Made by a program: the position numbers and the translations under genes. Shown one piece after another: positions 9,999 to 33,476 of a stretch of 33,667 nt of DNA. Each line of letters begins with the position of its first letter. Within the stretch, counting starts at the first letter, position 1. This DNA comes from Gemmatimonadaceae bacterium (GTDB lineage Bacteria > Latescibacterota > UBA2968 > UBA8231): positions 1 through 33,667 of the forward strand of contig PBSR01000106.1 of the NCBI GenBank assembly GCA_002726335.1. Reading direction: 5' to 3'. The notes beneath the pieces are model-generated. The model was not told where the DNA came from. It did no database searches and saw only the letters and a program-made list of their open reading frames with translations.

Positions 9999-10175
9999 AT
10001 GAACAGGACCGAGGACACGGACGCCACGCCGCGGCCCGTCGATCGCGAGGCGCTCAGGCGGTCGATCAGACACCCCTACATCACGCGCCAGAATCCCGCC
10101 CCGGATGCAGCCGGTGATGGCCAGGGAGAAACCCCGGATTCCAGGGAGTCCGGCCTGTCGCCCAACCGTCGATGA
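9999..10175 (+). CDS. Small hypothetical protein (58 aa) translationally coupled to the ElbD-like gene
   Basis: ATG at 9999 opens a 58-residue frame beginning MNRTEDTDATPRPVDREALR and ending SGLSPNRR, whose TGA (10173-10175) overlaps the ATG of the 1394-aa gene in an ATGA. The same overlap style is used later in this operon, which supports it as a real gene. It has no membrane segment or signal peptide. It is highly polar with a basic-acidic core (DREALRRSIRHPYITRQNP) and a Pro/Gly/Ser-rich tail, so probably disordered or a small partner protein. No family recognised. The Shine-Dalgarno is weak. It could instead be a leader whose translation sets expression of the large enzyme. Confidence 0.5.
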   Translation: MNRTEDTDATPRPVDREALRRSIRHPYITRQNPAPDAAGDGQGETPDSRESGLSPNRR

Positions 10176-13100
10176 TACGCACCTACTACACCGATCGTGT
10201 CCTGTTGATTCACGGTGGTACCGGCTTCGTCGGCTCGGCGCTGATCGCCAAGACCTTGCGCTCTCTCGGCCAACAAGTGAGGCGGATCTACGTCCTGATA
10301 AGACCGCGGCGGCGCAGTGACGGTGGTCAGGTAGCACCGGCAGAGCGGCTCGAACAGCTCTACGGAACCAGCCTTTTCGCACCCCTGCGAGTCGATGCCG
10401 AGCGTTGGGAGCAGTTGCGAGCCAAGGTCGTTCCTGTCACCATCGATGAGCGCCGTGCCGATCTGGGTCTGACAGAGGAGGACCGTCACCGCCTGATGGC
10501 GGAGGTGGACACGATCTTCAACATCGCCGCCACCGTCGTGTTTGATGAACCCCTCGATGTTTCGGTGCAGGCCAATGTGGCTGGCCCCCAGACGCTGCTG
10601 GAGCTGGCGCAGTCCTCCGGGCGGCGGATCGACTTCGTGCACGTGTCGACAGCCTATGTCAACGGCCAGCGCAGCGGCCGCATCCCAGACGAAGTGTTAC
10701 CCACCAACCTCGACATGCGGCAGATCATGGAGGGCGATGACGCCGGGGGCGGGTTTGATCCCGAGGCGGAGGTGGCTGACTGCCTGGCTTTCTGTGCAGC
10801 GGTACGTGAAGAGGCCGAATCCGAGATGTTCACCCGGGATCTGAAGCGTGACATTCTGCGGCAGTATCCGCGCAGCGGTGGGCGCAAGATGACCCGTACA
10901 CGTCTCGAAGGGCTGGTCAACGGCCGGCGTGGCAAGTGGATCGAGCGCCGGCTGGTGGACGAAGGCATGCGTCGGGGCAAAGTCCGAGGCTGGACCGACG
11001 TCTACACCTACACGAAGGCGATGGGTGAGCAACTTCTGGATCTGCGGCGGGGCGACATGCCTCTCGTCATCGTCCGGCCGAGCATCATCGAAAGCAGCCT
11101 GTCGGACCCGGAGCCGGGCTGGATCACCGGCCTCAAGGTGATGGATCCGTTGCTGGCGGCTTACGGTCGCGGTCTGATCCCGGATTTTCCCGCGCGCCCC
11201 GATGTCGTCATCGATGTGATCCCGGTGGACATGGTTGTCAATGGCTGCCTGGCGGCGGCCACCCGGGCGAATCCGGCGGGTGTGGAAGTCTTCCACATCG
11301 CCTCCGGGAGTGAGAACCCCGTGAAGATCGGCGAGATGTTCGACAGCGTGCGGGCCCACTATCAGCGGCTGCCGATGACGGACATGGGCGATGATCCACC
11401 GGCGCTGCCGGCGTGGACCTATCCCAGTCTGCGCACCTTCCGCCTCGTGTTCCACCTGAAGCATCTCTACCCCATCAGAGTGCGCGAGTGGCTGCTCAAC
11501 AACCTGCCCGGTCGCAAGCCATCGCCGACGCGGAAACGCCTGTTGCGGTCGATGCGTGTGCGCCTGCAGCGGGTGCTCTACTACATCGACATCTACAACC
11601 CCTACACGCATCTGGACTGCCAGTTTCAGACCGGCCGTACGCGCGCTCTCTTCGAGTCCCTTCCCGATGACGAACGCGAGACTTTCAGCCTGGACGTGAC
11701 GCGGATCGACTGGAAGAAATACGTCGAAGAGATCCACATGCCGGGTATGCGGCGCCACGTGCTGCGCGATGAATTCGCCATGGAAGCGGTGTTGCCGGAA
11801 GCGCCGCAGGAACCAGGAATCGAAGAGGCGCGGCTGCAGGTCGAAGAGGAGCTCGATACGCTTCCCGATCTGGTACGTGCCGCCTGTGCCCGATATCCGG
11901 AAGCGGTGGCCTGCGAGATGCAGACTGGCGGCGCCTGGTCGACGCTGACGTATGCGCAGTTGCTGGAGCGTGTGGAGCGACGTGCCGGATACTGGCAGGC
12001 GCTGGGCCTGGCGCCGACGGAGCGGGTCGTGCTGGCGGGGGACAGTGGGTCCGACTGGGTCATCAACTACCTGTCGGTGTCCTTTCTCGGCGGCGTCGTA
12101 GTGCCCGTCGATCCACTGACAGCACCCGACGAGGTCGCTCGTATCGCCGACTTTGTGCAGGCCACTGCTCTCATCGCCACCGTCGACCTGCTGGACTCGG
12201 TGCAGGCACTCGATGAGTGGTCCGGACATGCTATCGATTGGCACAGTGGCGAGCCGCAGGCGTCGGATCGGCAAGGTCCCGCTCCGGACAGCCCTGCTCC
12301 CGTCTGTTTTGTGGAGCCGGAACTCGACGCCTGGATGGAGGCGTCGATCATCTTCACCTCGGGTACGCGAGTCGATCCGCGGGGTGTCGTGCTGAGTCAC
12401 GCCAACCTGATCGCCGATCTGCTCGGGCTCAGCGAGGTGCAGCCCCTCTTCGAGTCAGACAGGCGGCTGTCGCTGCTGCCCCTGCATCACGGCCTCGAGT
12501 TCACCGGGGGACTGTTGCTGTCGCTCTGGTCAGGCGCGACCATGACCTATCTCGACGCCCCGTTGAACAGTCGTCGGATTTTGCAGACCATCCGTGATCG
12601 CAAGATCACCGCCCTGCTGGCGGTGCCACGCATCCTGAAGATCCTGATCGATCGGGTTTCGCGACTGGACCCGGATGGAGTGGACGGACCGAATGCAGCC
12701 ATCCTGAAGGGCCTGCGGCTCATCGTCAGCGGCGGGGCCCCCCTCGACGGCCAGTTGTTCGACGCCTATGCCCGACTCGGGCTCACGATCCACGAAGGGT
12801 ATGGGCTGACCGAAGCGTCACCCGTGGTTACGGTGAATCCCTTTCAGGACTGTCGCCGTGGCTCGGTCGGTATCGCGTTGCCCGGTGTTGAAATCCGCAT
12901 AGACGCCGAACCTGACGGGGAGGAAGGCGAGATCCTGGTTCGCGGGCACACGTTGATGCAGCGATACCTGGATCGGCCCGACCTGACGGCCCAGATCCTG
13001 CGTGACGGCTGGCTCTACACCGGAGACATCGGACGCCTCGACGCCGACGGATACCTTACGATCACGGGCCGGCAGCGCGAGTTGATCGTCACCGGTGCTG

Positions 13101-14356
13101 GCAAGAACGTCTATCCAGCCGAACTGGAGGATCTCTACGCCGACCTGCCACACACCGAGGAACTCGTCGTCGTCGGCCTGCCTTCCTCGCGCACTCTGGG
13201 AGAGCAGGTACACGGCGTCGCCGTGCTGGCCGTCGGGGCGCGCGAGCTCGTCGCCGAGGACGTGGCCGACGCCGTTCGTCAGCGGGTGTATGCCATATCC
13301 CGTGATCTGCCGACGTACCAGCGCATCGCGCAGGTGCACGTGTGGCGCCGCCCGCTGCCACGCCTCGATGATGGCCGCGTTGATCGCGCCGCTCTGCGGG
13401 CGGAGCTGGAACGGGCAGGGAGCGCTGCCGCCGAAGTCGATATCGGCCACAGTCTGGCTCCCTGGGAACGCGACATCTATCAGCGCGTCAGTGACCTGTC
13501 CGGACTGGCCGTGAGCGAGGTCGTCGCCCACGCGGATGCGCCGCTGGACACCATGATCAACTCACTGATGGCGGCCGAACTGGCAGCCGGCCTCGACCAG
13601 GGGGAAGGCGATCGGGTCAGCGGTCTGTTCGACAGCGGCACCACGACACTACGCCAGCTGCTTGACCGGGTCGGGGCAGATGCCGTGGCCAAGCCCGTGT
13701 CGGCCACGTACTGGTCAGCCATTCTGCAACACGTGACGACCCGCCGACGACCCGGCAGGATGGGGGCCCTCGCCGGGCGTATTCTCGGGCGGCTCCAGGG
13801 CGTAAGAATCGCTGGCAGCGAGAACCTCCCGGCCGATCAGCCTTATCTGCTGGTGGCCGCCGGCAACCAGAGCCGATCGACGGCGTCTGTGCTGACCTGC
13901 CTTCGCGGGTACGTCGATGGTGTGTGCCTGATGGTGGAACAGGAGGAGGATCTGCCTTGCGGGTGGCCGGCTGTCCTCGGAGGATGGCTGGTGGATCGAG
14001 TCGTACTCGCCAGGTATGACAGTCTGGAGTCCGGGCTGCGGGCAGCGGTCGCCCAACTTGGCTCGCGACGCCCTCTGCTGCTCTTCCCGGAAGGCCAGCG
14101 GGGGGCCGCCGGCCGCGGCTCCGGCGCCTTCAAGTCCGGCATCGGCTTGCTGGCACTCGAGCTCGGCGTGCCCGTCGTGCCGCTGCATATCGATGTTGCG
14201 GACGGTGTGGCTCGCATCCGTGCAGGTGTCCCGGTAACACCGGACTGCCCTGCCGCGCGACGAGAGCAACTGACATCCTATGAAGTCTATCGGGAGATCG
14301 CCGCCGAGGTTCGGACGCGACTCCGCGACCTGGCAGCTGAAGAGCAAGGCAACTGA
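10172..14356 (+). CDS. ElbD-like multidomain protein: fatty acyl-CoA reductase, acyl-AMP ligase, carrier, PlsC-like acyltransferase
   Basis: 1394 residues with four domains. (1) Fatty acyl-CoA reductase: Rossmann motif HGGTGFVG (about 14-21), active-site Y278-xxx-K282 in VYTYTKAMGEQ, C-terminal reductase tail to about 540. (2) AMP-forming acyl ligase (about 555-1070): P-loop TSGTRVDPRGV (about 730), GYGLTEAS (876-883), YTGDIGRLDADGYL. (3) Carrier-like segment with Ser1131 in INSLMAAEL, the usual phosphopantetheine site, though the preceding Asp is Asn. (4) PlsC-like domain (about 1190-1394) with FPEGQRG (1305-1311), but the catalytic HX4D box is NQSRST (1232-1237), so His and Asp are both missing. 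From memory, this architecture matches Myxococcus ElbD, involved in ether lipid formation. The neighbours are a lipid kinase (divergent), lgt (one base downstream) and an Mla-like operon. The ether-lipid role is inference. Confidence 0.88.
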   Translation: MIRTYYTDRVLLIHGGTGFVGSALIAKTLRSLGQQVRRIYVLIRPRRRSDGGQVAPAERLEQLYGTSLFAPLRVDAERWEQLRAKVVPVTIDERRADLGLTEEDRHRLMAEVDTIFNIAATVVFDEPLDVSVQANVAGPQTLLELAQSSGRRIDFVHVSTAYVNGQRSGRIPDEVLPTNLDMRQIMEGDDAGGGFDPEAEVADCLAFCAAVREEAESEMFTRDLKRDILRQYPRSGGRKMTRTRLEGLVNGRRGKWIERRLVDEGMRRGKVRGWTDVYTYTKAMGEQLLDLRRGDMPLVIVRPSIIESSLSDPEPGWITGLKVMDPLLAAYGRGLIPDFPARPDVVIDVIPVDMVVNGCLAAATRANPAGVEVFHIASGSENPVKIGEMFDSVRAHYQRLPMTDMGDDPPALPAWTYPSLRTFRLVFHLKHLYPIRVREWLLNNLPGRKPSPTRKRLLRSMRVRLQRVLYYIDIYNPYTHLDCQFQTGRTRALFESLPDDERETFSLDVTRIDWKKYVEEIHMPGMRRHVLRDEFAMEAVLPEAPQEPGIEEARLQVEEELDTLPDLVRAACARYPEAVACEMQTGGAWSTLTYAQLLERVERRAGYWQALGLAPTERVVLAGDSGSDWVINYLSVSFLGGVVVPVDPLTAPDEVARIADFVQATALIATVDLLDSVQALDEWSGHAIDWHSGEPQASDRQGPAPDSPAPVCFVEPELDAWMEASIIFTSGTRVDPRGVVLSHANLIADLLGLSEVQPLFESDRRLSLLPLHHGLEFTGGLLLSLWSGATMTYLDAPLNSRRILQTIRDRKITALLAVPRILKILIDRVSRLDPDGVDGPNAAILKGLRLIVSGGAPLDGQLFDAYARLGLTIHEGYGLTEASPVVTVNPFQDCRRGSVGIALPGVEIRIDAEPDGEEGEILVRGHTLMQRYLDRPDLTAQILRDGWLYTGDIGRLDADGYLTITGRQRELIVTGAGKNVYPAELEDLYADLPHTEELVVVGLPSSRTLGEQVHGVAVLAVGARELVAEDVADAVRQRVYAISRDLPTYQRIAQVHVWRRPLPRLDDGRVDRAALRAELERAGSAAAEVDIGHSLAPWERDIYQRVSDLSGLAVSEVVAHADAPLDTMINSLMAAELAAGLDQGEGDRVSGLFDSGTTTLRQLLDRVGADAVAKPVSATYWSAILQHVTTRRRPGRMGALAGRILGRLQGVRIAGSENLPADQPYLLVAAGNQSRSTASVLTCLRGYVDGVCLMVEQEEDLPCGWPAVLGGWLVDRVVLARYDSLESGLRAAVAQLGSRRPLLLFPEGQRGAAGRGSGAFKSGIGLLALELGVPVVPLHIDVADGVARIRAGVPVTPDCPAARREQLTSYEVYREIAAEVRTRLRDLAAEEQGN

Positions 14357-25769: not shown

Positions 25770-26387
25770 CTAGTCCGCCCTGGCCCCCGACTCGCCGGAA
25801 CGGCAACAGCGAAAGCCGATGAGGTCGAGGCTGTAGTCGTGTGTCAGGTGGCGTCCGTAGCGGCCATCGGCGCGCGAGTAGTTGACGCTGTGGAACCAGG
25901 ATCCTCCGCGGACGACCCGCCAGCCCGAGGCGCGGTCGTACCAGCCATCCGTCCACTCCCAGACGTTGCCGATCATGTCATGGACACCGTCCGGCGTGCT
26001 GCAGCCTTCATAGTCGCCACTGGCAGCCGGCCCCCCGGAACGGACCCAGCGGTCGCCGTCCTGCCAGGGAGTGTTGCAGCGGCGTGGTTCGAATTCGCCG
26101 CCGTACCCAAACTCCAGATTGCCTTGTCCACGGCAGGCCTGTTCCCATTCGGCCTCCGAGCACAGGCGGTGGCCGCGGTCCGCACAGAGCTGACGGGCCT
26201 CCTCCCAGGTGACGTCGACCCTCGGCGTCTGACCGGCGATGTTCGGATACTCGTAGCGGTCGATCCAGAACTGCCCGACACGGACCTGACCGGCATCCTC
26301 CTCGAGCCGCTCCTGGCCACCCCCGGTTGCCGGCAACAGGGAGATGAGGACCAGGAGCAACAGCTGGTGGTGACCGGCTCGGCTCAC
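25770..26387 (-). CDS. SUMF1/formylglycine-generating-enzyme-like exported protein without catalytic cysteines
   Basis: 205 residues with a signal peptide (HHQLLLLVLISLLPATGG). The rest is an FGE-sulfatase (SUMF1) fold: VRVGQFWIDRYEYPN, VTWEEARQLCADRGHRLCSEAEWEQACRG, MIGNVWEWTDGWYD and VVRGGSWFHS, ending GFRCCRSG. In true formylglycine-generating enzymes two cysteines lie in the segment between RGGS and GFR; here that segment reads FHSVNYSRADGRYGRHLTHD and contains none. It is therefore probably a non-sulfatase-activating member, a binding or scaffold protein. GTG at 26387 overlaps the stop of the CBM9-like lipoprotein by 4 bases, so the two act together. No sulfatase gene is in the window. 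Confidence 0.88.
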   Translation of the reverse strand: MSRAGHHQLLLLVLISLLPATGGGQERLEEDAGQVRVGQFWIDRYEYPNIAGQTPRVDVTWEEARQLCADRGHRLCSEAEWEQACRGQGNLEFGYGGEFEPRRCNTPWQDGDRWVRSGGPAASGDYEGCSTPDGVHDMIGNVWEWTDGWYDRASGWRVVRGGSWFHSVNYSRADGRYGRHLTHDYSLDLIGFRCCRSGESGARAD

Positions 26388-27355
26388 GGGGTAAACTCGA
26401 TGACGCCGAAGCGACCGGGGTGGTGGAAACCGCGCTGGAAGGTGGGACTCCAGGCCGTGTACTCGGTCTGGTCTTCGTAGGCCTCGTCCTGGGGAGCCCT
26501 CTCAGCTTGTATCTGCTCGAGTTGCTGCTCCAGGCGGGTCCGCTCAAGAGACTCTTTCTCGCCGAGTTCCTCGAGACGACGGCGCAGGGGGCGGCTGCGG
26601 GCTTCGAGTTCTCGCAGGGCGGCACGGACGCCGGCACCGGCGCCACGTTCGATCCGGTAGAGATTGAGCCGCCAGCGGTCACCGACGGACGGTCGACCGC
26701 CGCCGACAATCGTCGGCGAGTACGCCGACCAGGGAATCGCCATCTCCACCGTCCAGCCGACATCCAGGTCGGTGCTGTCATTTACGGTCCCGTGGACCTC
26801 GACGGCGGTTCTGAGTCCGGCGATGTCCCAGTCGATGGCCGAAACCCAGGCCGGTTGCACCGAGCTGATATGCAGATCGACGATGGCATTGAGGGGATTA
26901 ACCTCGACCTCGAGGTAGTCGAGGCCGTCGCCGTCGGGATCGATGAAGGCCTCCACGACTTCCTCCGACCACATGGGATCGTCTTCCTCTGTATATAGGG
27001 CCCACATGTCCGGGTCACGGCAGGCGAAGGCGATGTAGAGGGCATCGTCGTCCCATACCATGCGAGCCCGCGTCGCATGCAGGACATGGCCGTAGTCGTT
27101 GAGGATTCGCTCCAGACCATTGATCTGCGGCGCCGCCGCCCAGTCGAATTCGTCGAGTCGACCGTCGACCACGATCGGCTCTGTGGCATGGCGGACAAGG
27201 TAGTGAGGAAGGGGCGCCTCGGAGAACGATGAGGAGGGTGGATCTGGCGTCGGCCCTCCGATGACGGGCGCAGTGGTCGCACAGGCTGTGATCGCTGCCG
27301 TCAGGGCGAGACACCGGCCCAGGCTGGTAGGTGACTGGCTCTTGGTCCTCGCCAC
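26384..27355 (-). CDS. CBM9-like carbohydrate-binding lipoprotein with C-terminal coiled coil
   Basis: About 323 residues from GTG at 27355, chosen because AGGAG is eight bases upstream and the N-terminus then gives a lipoprotein signal (RCLALTAAITAC, Cys about 24). Starting further upstream would run across the flagellar promoter. The main part is a CBM9-like or DOMON-like beta sandwich: PIVVDGRLDEFDWAAAP, MVWDDDALYIAFACRDPD, EVVEAFIDPDGDGLDYLEVEVNP, VGWTVEMAIPW and GDRWRLNLYRIER. Such domains bind sugars and often lie in exported enzymes of polysaccharide use. After about 245 comes a Glu/Arg-rich coiled coil, ending HHPGRFGVIEFTP. It overlaps the SUMF1-like gene by 4 bases and is divergent from the flagellar chimera. 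Confidence 0.8.
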   Translation of the reverse strand: MARTKSQSPTSLGRCLALTAAITACATTAPVIGGPTPDPPSSSFSEAPLPHYLVRHATEPIVVDGRLDEFDWAAAPQINGLERILNDYGHVLHATRARMVWDDDALYIAFACRDPDMWALYTEEDDPMWSEEVVEAFIDPDGDGLDYLEVEVNPLNAIVDLHISSVQPAWVSAIDWDIAGLRTAVEVHGTVNDSTDLDVGWTVEMAIPWSAYSPTIVGGGRPSVGDRWRLNLYRIERGAGAGVRAALRELEARSRPLRRRLEELGEKESLERTRLEQQLEQIQAERAPQDEAYEDQTEYTAWSPTFQRGFHHPGRFGVIEFTP

Positions 27356-27483: not shown

Positions 27484-27561
27484 GGAAAGTCTTTCCTGAG
27501 ACAGCCCTTCCCGGCACGGCTCTCGAAAGGCCGTAACTGAAGTGTATGTAGAGAGTTACGG
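27484..27561. promoter_or_regulatory. Two palindromes upstream of the sigma-54 promoter (candidate enhancer sites)
   Basis: GGAAAG-T-CTTTCC at 27484-27496 and the inverted repeat CCGTAACT (27531-27538) with AGTTACGG (27554-27561). They lie about 50-130 bases upstream of the expected transcription start near 27612, the usual position for an activator of sigma-54 promoters such as a FlrC/FleQ-like protein. The two do not resemble each other, so at most one need be the activator site; the other may serve the divergent lipoprotein gene. Confidence 0.4.
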
Positions 27562-27585
27562 GAATCAGTCGAAACCCTGTAGAAG

Positions 27586-27601
27586 TGGCACATCCCTTGC
27601 T
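27586..27601 (+). promoter_or_regulatory. Sigma-54 (RpoN) promoter of the flagellar chimera
   Basis: TGGCACATCCCTTGCT: GG at 27587-27588 and GC at 27599-27600, with exactly ten bases between, matching the -24/-12 consensus TGGCAC-N5-TTGC fully. The start of transcription should be near 27612, giving a leader of about 39 bases to the ATG at 27651. RpoN promoters commonly drive middle flagellar genes, such as flgF-type rod genes. The sequence also shows that an earlier in-frame GTG at 27585 cannot be the translation start, since it lies in the promoter. Confidence 0.85.
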
Positions 27602-27650
27602 TAAAGAGCACAGGGGACAGATTTCACCGGACCAGACCACGGGATCGAGA

Positions 27651-29816
27651 ATGATCGAAGGCATATACATCTCCGCGTCGGGCATGCTGCCCAAGTCCAG
27701 TCGCCATGAGGCGATCGCCAACAACCTGGCCAATGCCGAGGTTCCCGGCTTCAAACGCGACGCCATGTTTCTGCGCGAAATGCAGGAGTCCAAGAAGCGT
27801 CTCTCCGGCGACTATCCGGATTGGCGCATCAACCGTGTCGAGGGTGTTTGGACCGACTTCGATCAGGGACCTCTGCGACGCACCGGCGGCATGTTCGATG
27901 TGGCCATCAAGGGCAAAGGGTTCTTCGCTGTAGAGACGCCGGACGGCGTCCAGTACACCCGCAACGGCACGTTCGCCCGTAACAACGAGGGGGTTCTCGT
28001 CAACATGATGGGACATACCGTCCTCGACGTGAATGGCGAGCAGATCGCCGTCCCCAACGCCTTCTCGCAGCCCTTGATCGACGCCGATGGCATGATCAAA
28101 GGTCGCGATCCCATCCTCGGCATCGATACGGTTCTGGGCCAGTTGCAGGCGGGACAGGATGCCGAGGTCACCATCAACGGGATCACCCTGCGGCGCTCGA
28201 CGAACACGATCACCGATGCTGTACAAGGCGTGACGATGACGTTACGGGAGCCAACCGAAGAAGGCACGCCGATCGAAATCAGCGTCAGCAAGGATGATAC
28301 GTCACAGCTGCGTGCTCAACTCGAGGATTTCGTCGGTGAATACAACAATGCGATGAACCTGATCTCCGAACAGTTCCGTTTCGACGATGCCACCGAGACG
28401 GCGGGCCCGCTGGCCGGCGATTCTACCCTGCTTGGTGTGCAGTCGCGCCTGCGTTCGGCGGTCAACGGCAGTATCGCCGTCGAAGGAGAATTCAATGCCC
28501 TGGTCTTCATGGGCATCACCTTCGATCGCGAGGGGCAGTTGACGATCGACGACGAACGTCTCACAGACGCCCTCGACAACAACCTGGCAAGCGTCAAGAA
28601 GCTGTTCGTCGCTGAGGGCTCGACGACGGACAACAAGATCGAGTTCGTGCGCAGCAACGAGCGCACCACCGCCGGTGACTATGATGTCGACATCTCCACA
28701 GCTGCGGCGCGCGCCGAAGTGCTGGGCAGCCTCGACCTGAGTGCTGGTATCGCCGCTGATCAGACGGTGACGATCACCGAGGCGGGGGGGGACAGCAAAC
28801 TCGCCGAAGTGCAGTTGCAGGCCGGGGATGACACCGACGACATCGTCGCCAAGATCAACGCCGCCTTCAACAGTCAGGTGGCTGAGGTCCGGCGGGCGAC
28901 ACTGGCCAACACGACGGATGGCACGACGGCGATCACCGAACCCACCACCTTCGGACAGATCAACGGCGCCGGTGCCGTCAATGGCGACACGATCCGCATC
29001 CAGGGCACTACCCATGACGGCACGGCAGTGCAGCGCGAGTTCACCATCGCCGATGTCGATACCGCTACGGTGGGTGACCTGCTGGCCGACGTGCGTGCTG
29101 CTTTTGGCAACAATGTCAGTGCCAATATCGACTCCGAGGGACGTCTGCTCATCACCGACAATCAGGTGGGTCCGAGCAATCTGACCCTCGCTCTGGTCGA
29201 GAAGAACGAAGGTGATGGCACACTGGATTTCGGCTCCGTGGAGGTCGAAGACGAAGGCCGCTTCCAGATGGAGATCACGGCCGAGAACAAGGACGGCTTC
29301 CTGATGTTGCGGCACGATTCGTTCGGCGAACGGGCGGGTTTCACTGTGACTCAGTCCGTCGAGCAGCTCGGAATCGACACCGACGAACACATCGGTGTCG
29401 ACGTGCAGGGCACGATCAACGGCGAGACAGCCGACGGCTTCGGCCGCATTCTGACCGGTGTCAGAGACAATGACAAGACCGATGGTCTGGCGCTGCGCGT
29501 AACTGCCACCGCGGAGGAGGTCACAGGCACCAGTGACTTCGGCACGATCAACCTGGTGTACGGCGTCGGCCGCATCCTGGATGATACGCTGTCCTTCATC
29601 ACAGACAGCTTCGACGGCACTCTCAAGACCCGCGAAGACGCCATCGACGACACCATCGACAATATGCAGGACCAGATTGCGGCCATGGAACGGCGAGTCG
29701 AGCAGAAGCGGCTGAACCTCGTCGGCAAGTTCGCTTCTCTCGAGGGAACGCTGGCGACCTTGCAGTCCCAGGGCGATTTCCTTACCTCACAGCTGGCCGG
29801 CCTGTCCAGAGGCTGA
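27651..29816 (+). CDS. Chimera: FlgF/FlgG rod-protein N-terminus fused to FliD filament cap C-terminus
   Basis: 721 residues from ATG at 27651. Residues 1-about 150 are the N-terminal part of a flagellar rod protein: MIEGIYISASGMLPKSSRHE, IANNLANAEVPGFKRD, GPLRRTGGMFDVAIKGKGFF, YTRNGTFARNNEGVLV, with the DADGMIKG stretch that normally precedes the FlgF/FlgG middle. From about 155 the sequence becomes FliD: GQDAEVTINGITLRRSTNTI (168-187), GVTMTLREPTEEGTPIEISV, FVGEYNNAMNLI, GPLAGDSTLLGVQSRLRSAV, and a helical C-terminus that ends GDFLTSQLAGLSRG. The usual FliD start and FlgF end are both absent. The rod part suits the sigma-54 promoter just upstream; the cap part suits fliS 45 bases downstream. 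No stop or frameshift interrupts the join. This may be a real deletion fusion or an assembly join. Confidence 0.85.
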   Translation: MIEGIYISASGMLPKSSRHEAIANNLANAEVPGFKRDAMFLREMQESKKRLSGDYPDWRINRVEGVWTDFDQGPLRRTGGMFDVAIKGKGFFAVETPDGVQYTRNGTFARNNEGVLVNMMGHTVLDVNGEQIAVPNAFSQPLIDADGMIKGRDPILGIDTVLGQLQAGQDAEVTINGITLRRSTNTITDAVQGVTMTLREPTEEGTPIEISVSKDDTSQLRAQLEDFVGEYNNAMNLISEQFRFDDATETAGPLAGDSTLLGVQSRLRSAVNGSIAVEGEFNALVFMGITFDREGQLTIDDERLTDALDNNLASVKKLFVAEGSTTDNKIEFVRSNERTTAGDYDVDISTAAARAEVLGSLDLSAGIAADQTVTITEAGGDSKLAEVQLQAGDDTDDIVAKINAAFNSQVAEVRRATLANTTDGTTAITEPTTFGQINGAGAVNGDTIRIQGTTHDGTAVQREFTIADVDTATVGDLLADVRAAFGNNVSANIDSEGRLLITDNQVGPSNLTLALVEKNEGDGTLDFGSVEVEDEGRFQMEITAENKDGFLMLRHDSFGERAGFTVTQSVEQLGIDTDEHIGVDVQGTINGETADGFGRILTGVRDNDKTDGLALRVTATAEEVTGTSDFGTINLVYGVGRILDDTLSFITDSFDGTLKTREDAIDDTIDNMQDQIAAMERRVEQKRLNLVGKFASLEGTLATLQSQGDFLTSQLAGLSRG

Positions 29817-29861: not shown

Positions 29862-30290
29862 ATGAACCGACCCGCACACAGGCAGTACAGCGAAGTCCAG
29901 ATCAAGACCGCCAACAAGGGCAAGCTCATCGTCCTGCTCTACCAGGGTGCGGTGCGTTTCATGCGCCGGTCCCTGATGCAGCTCGACGAGAAGGATATGG
30001 AGGGCAAAGGCAACAGCCTGATCCGTTCCCAGGATACCATCCTGGAGCTCATGTATGCCCTCGACCAGCAGCTGCTCGATGACGGCAATGAACTGGCTCA
30101 GAACCTGCAGCGGCTGTACCTGTACTGCTATCGTCGACTGGTGCACGCCAACACCCACCTCGATCGTGCCGCCATCGAGGAAGTGATCGAATTGTTCAAC
30201 AATTTGCTCGAAGCCTGGGAAAAAGTCTCGGCGCAGGGCCCTGAGGGCCCACCGGTGAGCCATCGCCCAACGGTGGCACTGACCGGATGA
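29862..30290 (+). CDS. fliS: Flagellar export chaperone FliS
   Basis: Binds the C-terminus of flagellin in the cytoplasm and stops it from polymerising before export. 142 residues, mostly alpha-helical. Family features: the opening YSEVQIKTANKGKLIVLLYQGAVRFM, then IRSQDTILELMYALDQ, ELAQNLQRLYLYCYRRLVHAN and IELFNNLLEAWEKV. It follows a FliD-derived gene, as is usual (fliD-fliS), and its stop overlaps the next start by 4 bases. The Shine-Dalgarno (GGGAG) is rather distant, about 15 bases from ATG. Confidence 0.94.
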   Translation: MNRPAHRQYSEVQIKTANKGKLIVLLYQGAVRFMRRSLMQLDEKDMEGKGNSLIRSQDTILELMYALDQQLLDDGNELAQNLQRLYLYCYRRLVHANTHLDRAAIEEVIELFNNLLEAWEKVSAQGPEGPPVSHRPTVALTG

Positions 30291-30724
30291 CACCGATGGC
30301 GCCTGACAAGCTGCAGCAGCTGCTGGAGATCCTCGACGAGCAGTGTGAGGACTACCAGTCCATGTACCGCGAAGGCGTCGCCCAACGCGACTGCTTGCGT
30401 GATGACGATCTGCGGGGTCTCAACGCCTCCACGGGCCGCATGAGGGCCCTGATGGACTCCGTCCGCGCGCGTCACACTCGCCTGCCGGTAGAGTTGATAC
30501 GGCTCGAACGTGAGCAGCCGGAGGTGGCAGAGCGCACCGAGTGTCTCCGGCACACGATCCAGTCGGTCCTCGACCTGCGGGATCAGAGTGAGCGGGCCGC
30601 CCGCGGCTTGCTGGGCGAGACGCGGCGCCAACTCAGGCAGGTCCGCACCGGTCGACGTGCATCTCGTGGCTACGGACGCCCGCCCGCCGCGCAGGAATCC
30701 CGGTTTGTGGACAATCTGCGCTGA
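30287..30724 (+). CDS. flgN: FlgN-like flagellar chaperone
   Basis: 145 residues, predicted to be nearly all helical in the first 115 (KLQQLLEILDEQCEDYQSMYREGVAQRD, DLRGLNASTGRMRALMDSV), ending in a loosely conserved tail with RASRGYGR and FVDNLR, as seen at the C-terminus of many FlgN proteins. FlgN escorts the hook-filament junction proteins FlgK and FlgL to the export gate. The start lies in an ATGA overlap with fliS. The fold and location support FlgN or FliT; I favour FlgN on the tail and on the following flgM, with moderate certainty. Confidence 0.7.
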   Translation: MTPMAPDKLQQLLEILDEQCEDYQSMYREGVAQRDCLRDDDLRGLNASTGRMRALMDSVRARHTRLPVELIRLEREQPEVAERTECLRHTIQSVLDLRDQSERAARGLLGETRRQLRQVRTGRRASRGYGRPPAAQESRFVDNLR

Positions 30725-30922: not shown

Positions 30923-31378
30923 ATGCGCATCGACGGGTTACCGAACCTGCAGAAGGTTTCCCAGCCCAATCAGCGCACCGATGCCGCTCGACCCCGCAAC
31001 AAGGTGGGGCAGGGCGACGACTCCGTCGAGATTTCGCGTCCGGCACAGGACGCGGCGGAACTGACGGAAACGCTGAAGGCGACACCAGAGACAGTCAACC
31101 CGCGGATCGGTGAGATCCGGGAGCGGGTGCAGTCAGGCTTCTACAACTCAGAGGATGTTCGCCGTGAAATCGCCGGCGCCATGCTCGACACGGATGGCAT
31201 ACGCCCCGTCGTCAATGAGGTAGCGGAAGTGCGTACCGCACAGCGGCAGATGGCGGACGTTCCCGACGTCCGGGAGGATCGCGTCGCCGAGTCGCGTGAG
31301 CGGGCGGCGAACGGTTTCTACGATCAGGCTGACGTGCGCACGCAGACGGCGCAGTCCATCATCGACGAATCCGCCTGA
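30923..31378 (+). CDS. flgM: FlgM-like anti-sigma-28 factor with duplicated C-terminal motif
   Basis: 151 residues, longer than usual (about 95-110). FlgM binds FliA sigma-28 until it is exported through the finished hook. The N-terminal half is disordered and has DDSVEISRPAQDAAEL, typical of FlgM. The sigma-binding helix region appears twice: RIGEIRERVQSGFYNSEDVR (61-80) and RVAESRERAANGFYDQADVR (120-139), about 13 identities in 29 aligned positions, sharing RER, GFY and DVR. A consensus sigma-28 promoter upstream gives autogenous control. The ATG is 4 bases after GGAACAG, and a strong terminator follows 70 bases after the stop. Confidence 0.88.
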   Translation: MRIDGLPNLQKVSQPNQRTDAARPRNKVGQGDDSVEISRPAQDAAELTETLKATPETVNPRIGEIRERVQSGFYNSEDVRREIAGAMLDTDGIRPVVNEVAEVRTAQRQMADVPDVREDRVAESRERAANGFYDQADVRTQTAQSIIDESA

Positions 31379-31448
31379 ACCTGACCCACCAACCCACGGT
31401 GGCGTGATCGGCAGGCACGATCCTGCAGCATGCCGTCGCATATCTTCG

Positions 31449-31486
31449 GGGGGATCGACCATACGGTCGATCCCCCTCTTTCTGTT
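31449..31486 (+). terminator. Rho-independent terminator after flgM
   Basis: GGGGGATCGACC (31449-31460), loop ATAC, GGTCGATCCCCC (31465-31476), a perfect 12-bp stem, followed by TCTTTCTGTT. It lies 70 bases after the flgM stop and only 13 bases before the next gene remnant, cleanly ending the flagellar transcript. Confidence 0.93.
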
Positions 31487-31498
31487 GAGGAAACCGCC

Positions 31499-32291
31499 TT
31501 GACCCTATACGTCGGTGTCGACGCATCCGGCGGTGCTGTGTGCCGGTGTTGCGGGAGCCGGGCGGCTGGCGGAGCAGGTCGCTCTGAAGGGGGAGCTGGA
31601 GAGCAGGGTCCTGGCTGAGAGTATTCTCGTGGTGACAGACGCGCGAACGGCTCTGGAGGGCGCTCATTGCGGCTCTCCGGGGATCGTCTGCATTGCCGGC
31701 ACCGGATCCATGGTACTGGGCCGCAACGCATCCGGGGAAGAGGCACGCGCTGGAGGGTGGGATCCCGTGCTGGGGGATGAGGGGAGCGCCTACTGGCTCG
31801 TGCTCGAGAGTGTCCGCCGGGCCTGCGAGCCCTGGACGGCAGCGGTCCGACCACACAGCTGCGGAAAGATCTGCTCGAAGTACTCGATTTGAGTGAGTGG
31901 GACGAGATCATCGCCGGTGTGTACGGCGGCGGCTTGAGCCGTGAACGAATCGCCGAAGCGTGTCCCGCCGTGTTCGCCGCCGCACGATCGGGAGATCAGG
32001 TCGCAGTCGAGGTCATCGATTCCGGTGCGCGCCCTGGGTGCCCAGGTGGCTGCCGTCGCGGGGCGTCTCTGTATGCCGGCGCCCGTCGCAGTCGCCTGCA
32101 CGGGCGGAGTGTTCGCCGAACTCGACGCTCTCCGTCGTCCACTGATGGCAGGAGCGGGGCATACTGCCCTGGACCTGAGGGTGCCACAGGTCTCGGCTCT
32201 CCTCGGGGCGCTGCTGCTGGCAATGCACGTGGTCGGGACCCGCGTCCCCGATGCAGCAGTCGCCGCCTGGTCTCTGTCTGACAAGCCTTGA
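31499..32291 (+). pseudogene. Decayed BadF/BcrA-type ATPase (N-acetylglucosamine-kinase family)
   Basis: Fragments of one ROK/BadF-like sugar kinase lie in three frames. TTG at 31499, with GAGG upstream, opens LTLYVGVDASGG, the phosphate-1 loop. It then jumps to VAGAGRLAEQ in another frame, so about 50 residues are missing. The next segment is well preserved: VTDARTALEGAH, PGIVCIAGTGSMVLGRN and GWDPVLGDEGSAYW. Near 31830 the frame changes in a CCC run, and DGSGPTTQLRKDLLEVL continues through GDQVAVEVID. Near 32020 it changes again to RALGAQVAAVAGRL and CTGGVFAELD to the end. A deletion plus at least two frameshifts means no full product. Sequencing error could explain the shifts but not the missing part. 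Confidence 0.82.
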
Positions 32292-32315: not shown

Positions 32316-32438
32316 CGGCAGTCTGGCCTCGAGGTGCAGCACCCGATGGCCAACCCCCTTATTTTGAACTGGTTAGGCACGATTCCCCGACGAGGCAGGG
32401 CCCCACAGGTCAGGTCTCCAGGATGCAGACCCTTCAGG

Positions 32439-33476
32439 ATGCGACCCGTGGTTCGTGAGGTCCTGAGCGATCGAGAAGAGCAGGTACTGGCCGCTCTCGT
32501 ACGCGCTCATGTCGATCTCGGTGCGCCCGTGGGCTCCGCCAGTCTGTTGGAACGGGAGCGTCTGGATGTCAGTCCGGCGACGGTTCGCAAGACGCTTGTC
32601 AGTCTCGAGGACAAGGGCTTCGTGCACCAGCCGCACACCTCGGCAGGGCGCATGCCGACCAACAAGGCGTACAGATTCTACGCCACTCACGCTCTCGGCA
32701 ACGAGCCCGTGGGGGGCAGTAGAGAGCTCGGCAGCCTGCGGTATCAGATCGAAGCCAGACTGCAGCAGGTCTCCGCCGACGAGATCCACGGGCAGCTGGC
32801 GGAGATCATCGGCGGCGTGTCGATGCAACTCGGACTGGTGCTGGCGCCCCGCTTCGAGCAGGTGCGTATCGACCATCTCGAACTGGTACGGCTGGCCGAG
32901 AGCCGCATGCTCCTGGTTGTCTCGCTCGAGACGGGGCCGGTTCGCAGCCTCGTAATAGAAGTGGGGACCACGGCCGACCCCCGCGAGGTCGCCGGGGTTT
33001 CGGTCCGCCTCAACGAGCGACTGGCGGGGCTGACCGTTTGGGAGGTGCGGGCCACGGTCCGCGAGCGCATCCGTGAACTGGGCACTGGCTTCGAACCGGC
33101 GCTGCTGCGGGCTGTCGTCGAAGAGATCGAGACGATGGCAGCACCCTCGAAGGATCTGCTGCACGTGGCCGGAGCGCGGAATATCTGCGTCCAACCCGAA
33201 TTCCGTGATGCCTCGGACGTGGCCGACCTGTTCGATCTGGTGGAGCATCGTGAGGCGCTCGCCGGTCTGCTCTTGGATCGCCAGGGCGTCGTCGTCACGA
33301 TCGGTGACGAAAATGAGTTGCACGAGTTGCACCTGTGCAGTCTGGTGACGGCCAGTTACCAGGTCCATGGGGCCATTGGAGTCATCGGTGTCATGGGCCC
33401 CACCCGGATGCCATATGACCGCGTCGTCGCTCTGGTGAATTACGCTGCCTCCCGTGCCCCCGATCTGGTCGCCTGA
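32439..33476 (+). CDS. hrcA: Heat-inducible transcription repressor HrcA
   Basis: Represses heat-shock operons such as dnaK and groESL by binding CIRCE, with GroEL as cofactor. About 345 residues from ATG at 32439 (MRPVVREVLSDREEQVL), the usual length; earlier GTG or ATG starts would add an unrelated leader. The winged-helix N-terminus includes GAPVGSASLLERERLDVSPATVRKTLVSLE and QPHTSAGRMPTNKAYRFY, both diagnostic. The C-terminal half includes VLAPRFEQVRIDHLELVRL, and ends with GAIGVIGVMGPTRMPYDRVVALV, the HrcA end motif. It is followed 85 bases later by a probable grpE. Confidence 0.96.
   Translation: MRPVVREVLSDREEQVLAALVRAHVDLGAPVGSASLLERERLDVSPATVRKTLVSLEDKGFVHQPHTSAGRMPTNKAYRFYATHALGNEPVGGSRELGSLRYQIEARLQQVSADEIHGQLAEIIGGVSMQLGLVLAPRFEQVRIDHLELVRLAESRMLLVVSLETGPVRSLVIEVGTTADPREVAGVSVRLNERLAGLTVWEVRATVRERIRELGTGFEPALLRAVVEEIETMAAPSKDLLHVAGARNICVQPEFRDASDVADLFDLVEHREALAGLLLDRQGVVVTIGDENELHELHLCSLVTASYQVHGAIGVIGVMGPTRMPYDRVVALVNYAASRAPDLVA

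What the first reader, a model, noticed from the sequence alone, without database searches (positions are those of the whole stretch)
27651..29816. In-frame fusion of FlgF/FlgG N-terminus to FliD C-terminus
The first about 150 residues are a rod protein (IANNLAN, GFKRD, YTRNGTF), and from about 155 the protein is FliD (GQDAEVTINGITLRRS). The join is near 28101-28130. The usual FlgF end and FliD start are both absent. If real, one protein would combine rod assembly with filament capping, or one function was lost in a deletion of intervening genes (flgG and others). A consensus sigma-54 promoter before it and fliS after it show each flank is otherwise normal.
Basis: partly seen in the sequence, partly recalled or inferred. 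Interest (0 to 1): 0.9.

Follow-up and report, generated by a model that had tools for sequence, protein, structure and literature searches.

The report
Flagellar deletion scar fusing two genes
In an uncultured bacterium, a recent loss of about 24 kilobases of flagellar genes joined the start of a rod gene to the end of a filament-cap gene in frame, most likely leaving a useless hybrid and a cell that no longer swims, while relatives keep the two genes separate or have lost them in other ways.

Summary
The fusion is real in the sequence: 27651-29816 is one open frame of 721 codons, FlgF residues 1-166 joined to the last 555 residues of FliD at 28140-28148. It is most likely the scar of one deletion. 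In a relative (G003) flgF and fliD lie on one strand with flgG, flgA, flgH, flgI, a flgJ-like gene, flgN, flgK, flgL, fliW, two glycosyltransferase genes, three flagellins and flaG between them; the window has the same outer genes in the same order, with about 24.3 kb (G003 measure) missing. The join lies on a Leu-Gln that both proteins share (5 to 9 bases alike), which explains the kept frame. A second public protein (P0001) has the same join with two residue differences, and no intact FlgF or FliD closer than 87% or 83% was found, so an assembly error or a rare allele is unlikely. Relatives lost the cluster in other ways (G004 empty site, G005 fragments). The hybrid lacks the FlgF C-terminal and FliD N-terminal parts, and the locus lacks hook-associated, rod, ring and flagellin genes, so a dual-function protein is improbable. 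The FliD half shows no decay: the event is recent, or, less likely, the product is still used.

The parts
27586..27600 (+). sigma-54-type promoter site (TGGCAC-N5-TTGC) of the former flgF operon
   Evidence: exact match, 1 in window, 0.05 expected; similar site before flgF in L032, L052, L053, L055, L056
27651..29816 (+). hybrid open frame flgF'-'fliD, 721 aa
   Evidence: same hybrid in P0001 with 2 differences
27651..28148 (+). FlgF residues 1-166 (of 263 in most relatives)
   Evidence: 87% identity to P0121 and P0122 over 166 residues
28140..28148 (+). join: CAGTTGCAG, bases shared by flgF (Gln-Leu-Gln) and fliD (Glu/Gln-Leu-Gln), 5 to 9 alike judging from relatives
28149..29816 (+). FliD C-terminal part (555 aa; FliD of relatives is about 1220 aa)
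   Evidence: 83% to P0002, 80% to L001; Pfam FliD_C
29862..30290 (+). fliS, intact frame
   Evidence: Pfam FliS E 6.9e-31; 80% to G001
30287..30724 (+). flgN-like chaperone gene, intact frame
   Evidence: Pfam FlgN E 2e-6, 28.7 bits, just under its 30.5-bit cut-off; same place in G001 and G003
30923..31378 (+). flgM (anti-sigma-28), intact frame
   Evidence: Pfam FlgM E 1.1e-14
31420..32290 (+). BadF/BcrA-type ATPase gene in pieces: internal deletion near its start and at least two further frame changes; limits approximate
   Evidence: three-frame reading against single-frame copies in G001, G005, G007; Pfam BcrAD_BadFG fragment
32334..33476 (+). hrcA, right-hand syntenic anchor
   Evidence: Pfam HrcA E 7.1e-50; follows flgM directly in G003, and flgM plus the ATPase gene in G001
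26384..27226 (-). CBM9-domain gene, left-hand syntenic anchor (start approximate, by homology)
   Evidence: next to flgF in G003, G010, G016
25770..26387 (-). FGE-sulfatase-type gene, left-hand syntenic anchor

Best explanation
An ancestor had the ordinary flagellar cluster flgF ... fliD. One deletion of about 24 kb (G003 measure), joined at a short stretch that flgF and fliD happen to share (both spell Leu-Gln in the same frame), removed flgG to the first half of fliD. The hybrid kept its frame because of where the shared bases lie. It is probably transcribed from the old flgF sigma-54 promoter, with fliS, flgN and flgM now behind it, but builds neither rod nor cap; the lineage has probably lost its flagellum. 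Shown: frame, join, synteny, intact relatives, a second sequence of the same join, different losses in kin. Inferred: that it was one deletion and how it was joined, loss of motility, uselessness of the product.
For: Same outer genes in the same order on both sides in G003, with flgF at C96:177345-177845 and fliD at C96:151391-153088 (matched parts) on one strand, about 24.3 kb between the matching break positions; the genes between them confirmed by profile. Break on the shared Leu-Gln: relatives' DNA GGGCAGCTGCAGATC (flgF, G003) and TCGGAGTTGCAGGCG (fliD, L001), window GGGCCAGTTGCAGGCG. Of the 217 listed proteins only P0001 carries both halves; with FlgF words and lengths of 396-1261 aa it was the only hit among 194 candidates. 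G004 has CBM9 about 0.4 kb from hrcA and no match to FlhA, FliF, FlgF or FliD; G005 has a frame-broken flgF and pieces of flgG, flgI, fliS, flgN and flgM. Window and G005 each keep pieces that the other lacks. The HrcA tree groups window, G001 and G005 (96/97), then G004 (99/96).
Against: The window's own genome is not held, so flagellar genes elsewhere cannot be excluded. The FliD part shows no relaxation: 17 window-only changes against 45 G001-only (554 sites, outgroup P0010); six control genes pooled gave 130 against 116. That fits a recent event but is also what a used protein would show.
Confidence: 0.86

Rival explanations
1. The deletion exists only in part of the population; other cells of the species keep the intact cluster (polymorphism or a reversible rearrangement).
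For: A metagenome consensus cannot show fixation; fliS, flgN, flgM and the FliD part look freshly intact.
Against: No full-length FlgF above 87% or FliD above 83% was found, while the hybrid's cluster has 10 member sequences (one search scored only the 7997 candidates sharing most words). None of the 29 window proteins given to Pfam matched a recombinase or transposase (other frames were not scanned). One search shows only weak repeats; one weak inverted pair (25 bases, 72%) has an arm ending at 28139, but both its arms lie within the flgF part.
Confidence: 0.08
2. Assembly chimera of two places in the genome.
For: No reads or closed genome were available; the join lies on shared bases.
Against: Same join in P0001, which differs at residues 431 and 546; no 15-base word in 28111-28160 recurs in the window (the rest of the genome could not be checked); flanks are syntenic on both sides, as a deletion predicts.
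Confidence: 0.03
3. A working hybrid axial protein: FlgF N-terminal export and rod part with the FliD C-terminal part, kept by selection in a reduced apparatus.
For: Open 721-codon frame, conserved sigma-54 site, no excess of changes in the FliD part.
Against: No homologue of the hybrid beyond P0001; FlgF C-terminal and FliD N-terminal parts absent; flgG, flgH, flgI, flgK, flgL and flagellins absent from the locus. The predicted model is too poor (residues 1-106 under 50) to test a mixed terminal domain.
Confidence: 0.03

Closest known systems
FlgF, proximal rod protein
   Same: Residues 1-166, with the rod-protein N-terminal motif (PF00460) and the FlgE/F/G D1 domain (PF22692)
   Different: Residues 167-263 of relatives, with the rod-protein C-terminal domain (PF06429), are missing
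FliD (HAP2), filament cap
   Same: C-terminal 555 residues, Pfam FliD_C, long C-terminal helix in the model
   Different: First about 660 residues including Pfam FliD_N are missing
Deletion scars in decaying flagellar clusters
   Same: Cluster partly removed, outer genes kept; relatives show fragments or an empty site at the same place
   Different: Here a single join left a long in-frame hybrid of two axial-protein genes

Membership tests
FlgF (TIGR02490) | match over the curated cut-off | tested here: not met
   136.3 bits against 178.5; profile 1-143 of 218
FlgF (TIGR02490) | C-terminal domain of rod proteins (PF06429) | tested here: not met
   absent; present in G003 FlgF and listed for most 263-aa relatives
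FliD | FliD_N (PF02465) | tested here: not met
   absent; present in G003 FliD and listed for most full-length relatives
FliD | FliD_C (PF07195) | tested here: met
   E 2.9e-47, two stretches
Deletion scar | relatives with both genes whole, the missing segment between them, and the same outer genes | tested here: met
   G003
Deletion scar | short shared sequence at the break | tested here: met
   5 to 9 bases, judged from relatives because the parent sequence is unknown
Deletion scar | no intact copy elsewhere in the genome | not testable with these tools
   no genome held for the window

The most novel reading that the evidence does not exclude
The hybrid is a made and selected protein: a rod-type N-terminus that directs export, carrying the FliD C-terminal part as a secreted or envelope-bound product of a reduced flagellar secretion apparatus, with FliS, FlgN and FlgM kept as its chaperones and regulator.
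Probability: 0.03. Interest if true: 0.75.

Novelty: new member of a known kind. Interest (0 to 1): 0.3.

Why it matters
It is a snapshot of flagellar loss: an intact cluster (G003), a first large deletion (window), fragments (G005) and an empty site (G004) can be lined up at one locus in related uncultured bacteria, so the order and mechanism of decay can be studied. It also warns annotators: the hybrid could be labelled FliD or FlgF and counted as evidence of motility.

Tried and rejected
Own-genome search and files: not held. Phage records, near mode only: no match. Rfam and tRNA scans of the window: nothing, so no known RNA gene at the break. Repeats within 27500-28700: two direct pairs (23 and 19 bases, 83% and 79%) have a copy on either side of the join but neither lies at it, and two weak inverted pairs were listed; I take them as chance. 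Structure prediction on a mixed alignment of 36 FlgF and FliD sequences gave mean pLDDT 66.5 with residues 1-106 and 167-200 below 50, so it tests nothing about a mixed terminal domain; no fold search was made on it. A sequence search of solved structures matched FliD entries from about residue 157 or 164 on and FlgF and FlgG entries before about residue 160. P0213 (FlgF 1-47 before a histidine-kinase part) is from a 1022-bp contig; its best-scoring kinase matches in G001-G007 are 30-37% identical and lie away from flgF (list cut by the tool), so it was left aside as possibly a contig error. Relaxed selection on the FliD part was looked for and not found. For the FlgF part 15 comparisons gave 5 to 9 window-only against 3 to 12 sister-only changes, too few to judge. 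Equal longest-contig lengths (52263 for P0002 and P0122; 35052, 91050, 103630 for other pairs) suggest shared contigs, but this is inference from lengths. Literature: six searches, seen as listings with abstract starts; one search found none. One paper (PMC4454575) was seen in passages only, one of them from its abstract: it reports flagellar genes in Latescibacteria single-cell genomes. No report of this hybrid was seen in those listings; that is no proof of absence.

Full report
What is there. The window holds an open frame from ATG 27651 to 29816, 721 aa. Its first part is FlgF: NCBIfam flgF, E 1.1e-39 over profile positions 1-143 of 218, below the curated cut-off, and 87% identity over 166 residues to two 263-aa FlgF proteins. 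Its second part is the C-terminal part of FliD: Pfam FliD_C, E 2.9e-47, 83% identity over 553 residues to the 1219-aa P0002 and 80% over 558 residues to L001. No FliD_N and no rod-protein C-terminal domain is matched, while G003's FliD and FlgF have them.

The join. FlgF relatives read ...LGIDTVLGQLQVTDFPDL..., FliD relatives ...ARSSELQAGQDAEV..., and the window ...LGIDTVLGQLQAGQDAEV.... Both proteins have Leu-Gln there, in the same frame. At DNA level G003 flgF has GGGCAGCTGCAGATC, L001 fliD TCGGAGTTGCAGGCG, the window GGGCCAGTTGCAGGCG. The parents' own letters are unknown, so the shared stretch is put at 5 to 9 bases. No N lies in the window and no 15-base word in 28111-28160 recurs in it.

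Neighbourhood. Downstream of the hybrid are fliS, a flgN-like gene and flgM, then a broken ATPase gene and hrcA. Upstream, on the other strand, are a CBM9-domain gene and an FGE-sulfatase-type gene. In G003 contig C96 the same outer genes frame a complete cluster: FGE and CBM9 genes, flgF, flgG, flgA, flgH, flgI, a rod-binding (flgJ-like) gene, flgN, flgK, flgL, fliW, two glycosyltransferase/TPR genes of 1334 and 1406 aa, three flagellins, flaG, fliD, then fliS, a second flgN-like gene, flgM and hrcA. Pfam supports these names for flgF to flaG and fliD; flgF and flgG share domains and are told apart by order and by closeness to the FlgF hits, and flgL by its place and size, since Pfam gives it only the flagellin domains. 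The ATPase gene is not between flgM and hrcA in G003 (233 bases there) but is in G001. From flgF codon 161 to the break position in fliD is 24,298 bases in G003; with the break at codon 166 it is about 15 bases less. One deletion of that segment gives the window's arrangement.

Is it an assembly error? A protein search of about 5.8 billion sequences found the same hybrid as P0001 (10 member sequences, 1 contig listed, 2950 bp), with differences at residues 431 and 546 only. One search scored only the 7997 candidates that share most words and listed 120 of 153 hits. A search with words from residues 1-160 among proteins of 396-1261 aa gave 1 hit of 194 candidates, P0001. Of the 217 listed proteins only P0001 carries both halves. 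No intact FlgF above 87% or FliD above 83% was found, so the sequences of this species that I could find carry the deletion. An error is therefore unlikely; partial polymorphism is not excluded.

Kin. The loci come from MAGs titled Gemmatimonadetes or Gemmatimonadaceae; some protein names say Candidatus Latescibacterota. I take the group to be Latescibacterota, from those names. Of 60 genomes searched round G001, 26 had a match to the hybrid. Of 20 of them searched for FlhA and FliF, 11 and 12 had one; completeness is not told, and absence from a draft is weak evidence. The HrcA tree has 15 rows (window and 14 genomes; of the 20 genomes G002, G010 and G016 had no match and G006, G011 and G020 only fragments, and these six were left out). 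It puts window, G001 and G005 together (96/97) with their order open, then G004 (99/96), then G003 (100/99). G001 keeps a whole fliD and a FliF, but no FlhA or FlgF was found in it. G005 holds a flgF broken at codon 47 and pieces of flgG, flgI, fliS, flgN and flgM; its FlgG-FlgI and FlgI-FliS joins are in frame, its fliS-flgN join is not. That contig has two N runs (132-460 and 1679-2020), neither at those joins. G004 has the CBM9 gene about 0.4 kb from hrcA and no match to FlgF, FliD, FlhA or FliF. Window and G005 each keep pieces that the other lacks, so their deletions differ; with G004 the cluster was probably lost at least three times near the window, though a shared earlier inactivation cannot be excluded.

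Function. The sigma-54 site before flgF is exact in the window and similar in five relatives, so the hybrid may be transcribed. In the known axial proteins the N- and C-terminal helices of one chain pair in the inner domain (recalled); here they come from different proteins. The locus has lost rod, ring, hook-associated and flagellin genes. I infer that the product builds nothing and that the lineage does not swim, unless a second set exists elsewhere, which could not be tested.

Against my reading. The FliD part has not decayed: 17 window-only against 45 G001-only changes over 554 sites with outgroup P0010, and 15 to 31 against 27 to 42 in the ten other comparisons with four sisters and three outgroups, the sister always higher; the pooled controls FliS, FlgN, FlgM, HrcA and two upstream genes against G001, with G003 as outgroup, gave 130 against 116; Fisher p 3.5e-4 for the first comparison. 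Outgroups differ between the two sets, and a fast G001 FliD may add to the contrast. The dN/dS of the FliD part against G001 is 0.108, beside 0.094 for FliS, 0.148 for FlgN, 0.073 for HrcA, 0.169 and 0.119 for the upstream genes, with dS over 1 and so rough. A very recent deletion explains this; continued use would too. The neighbouring ATPase gene, in contrast, is in pieces in the window and in one frame in G001, G005 and G007.

Verdict. Real feature, ordinary mechanism: an in-frame deletion scar in a flagellar cluster that is being lost repeatedly in this group. New member of a known kind; modest interest for the staged decay series.

Noticed in passing
window 31420-32290: BadF/BcrA-type ATPase gene is in pieces here (internal deletion and further frame changes; the single-base ones could be sequence errors), in one frame in G001, G005 and G007.
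   Followed up: partly
L052 (G005 contig C336), 1082-1654 and 2023-2469: Two more in-frame joins of flagellar genes in a relative, FlgG 1-105 into FlgI and FlgI into FliS, beside a frame-broken flgF and an out-of-frame fliS-flgN join. Whether in-frame joins are commoner than chance in such decay was not tested.
   Followed up: partly
P0213: 269-aa protein with FlgF residues 1-47 before a histidine-kinase part, from a 1022-bp contig.
   Followed up: partly
P0086 and P0138: A 455-aa FliD lacking its N-terminal part and a whole FlgF share the same longest-contig length (3,088,930), which hints at another decayed fliD in a long contig.
   Followed up: no
L053 (G016 contig C191, 151-545): flgF broken by a frame change at a contig end, next to the same CBM9 gene.
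   Followed up: no
window 10172-14356: 1394-aa protein with NAD-binding male-sterility, AMP-binding and acyltransferase domains, on the same contig as this locus in G003 and G004.
   Followed up: no
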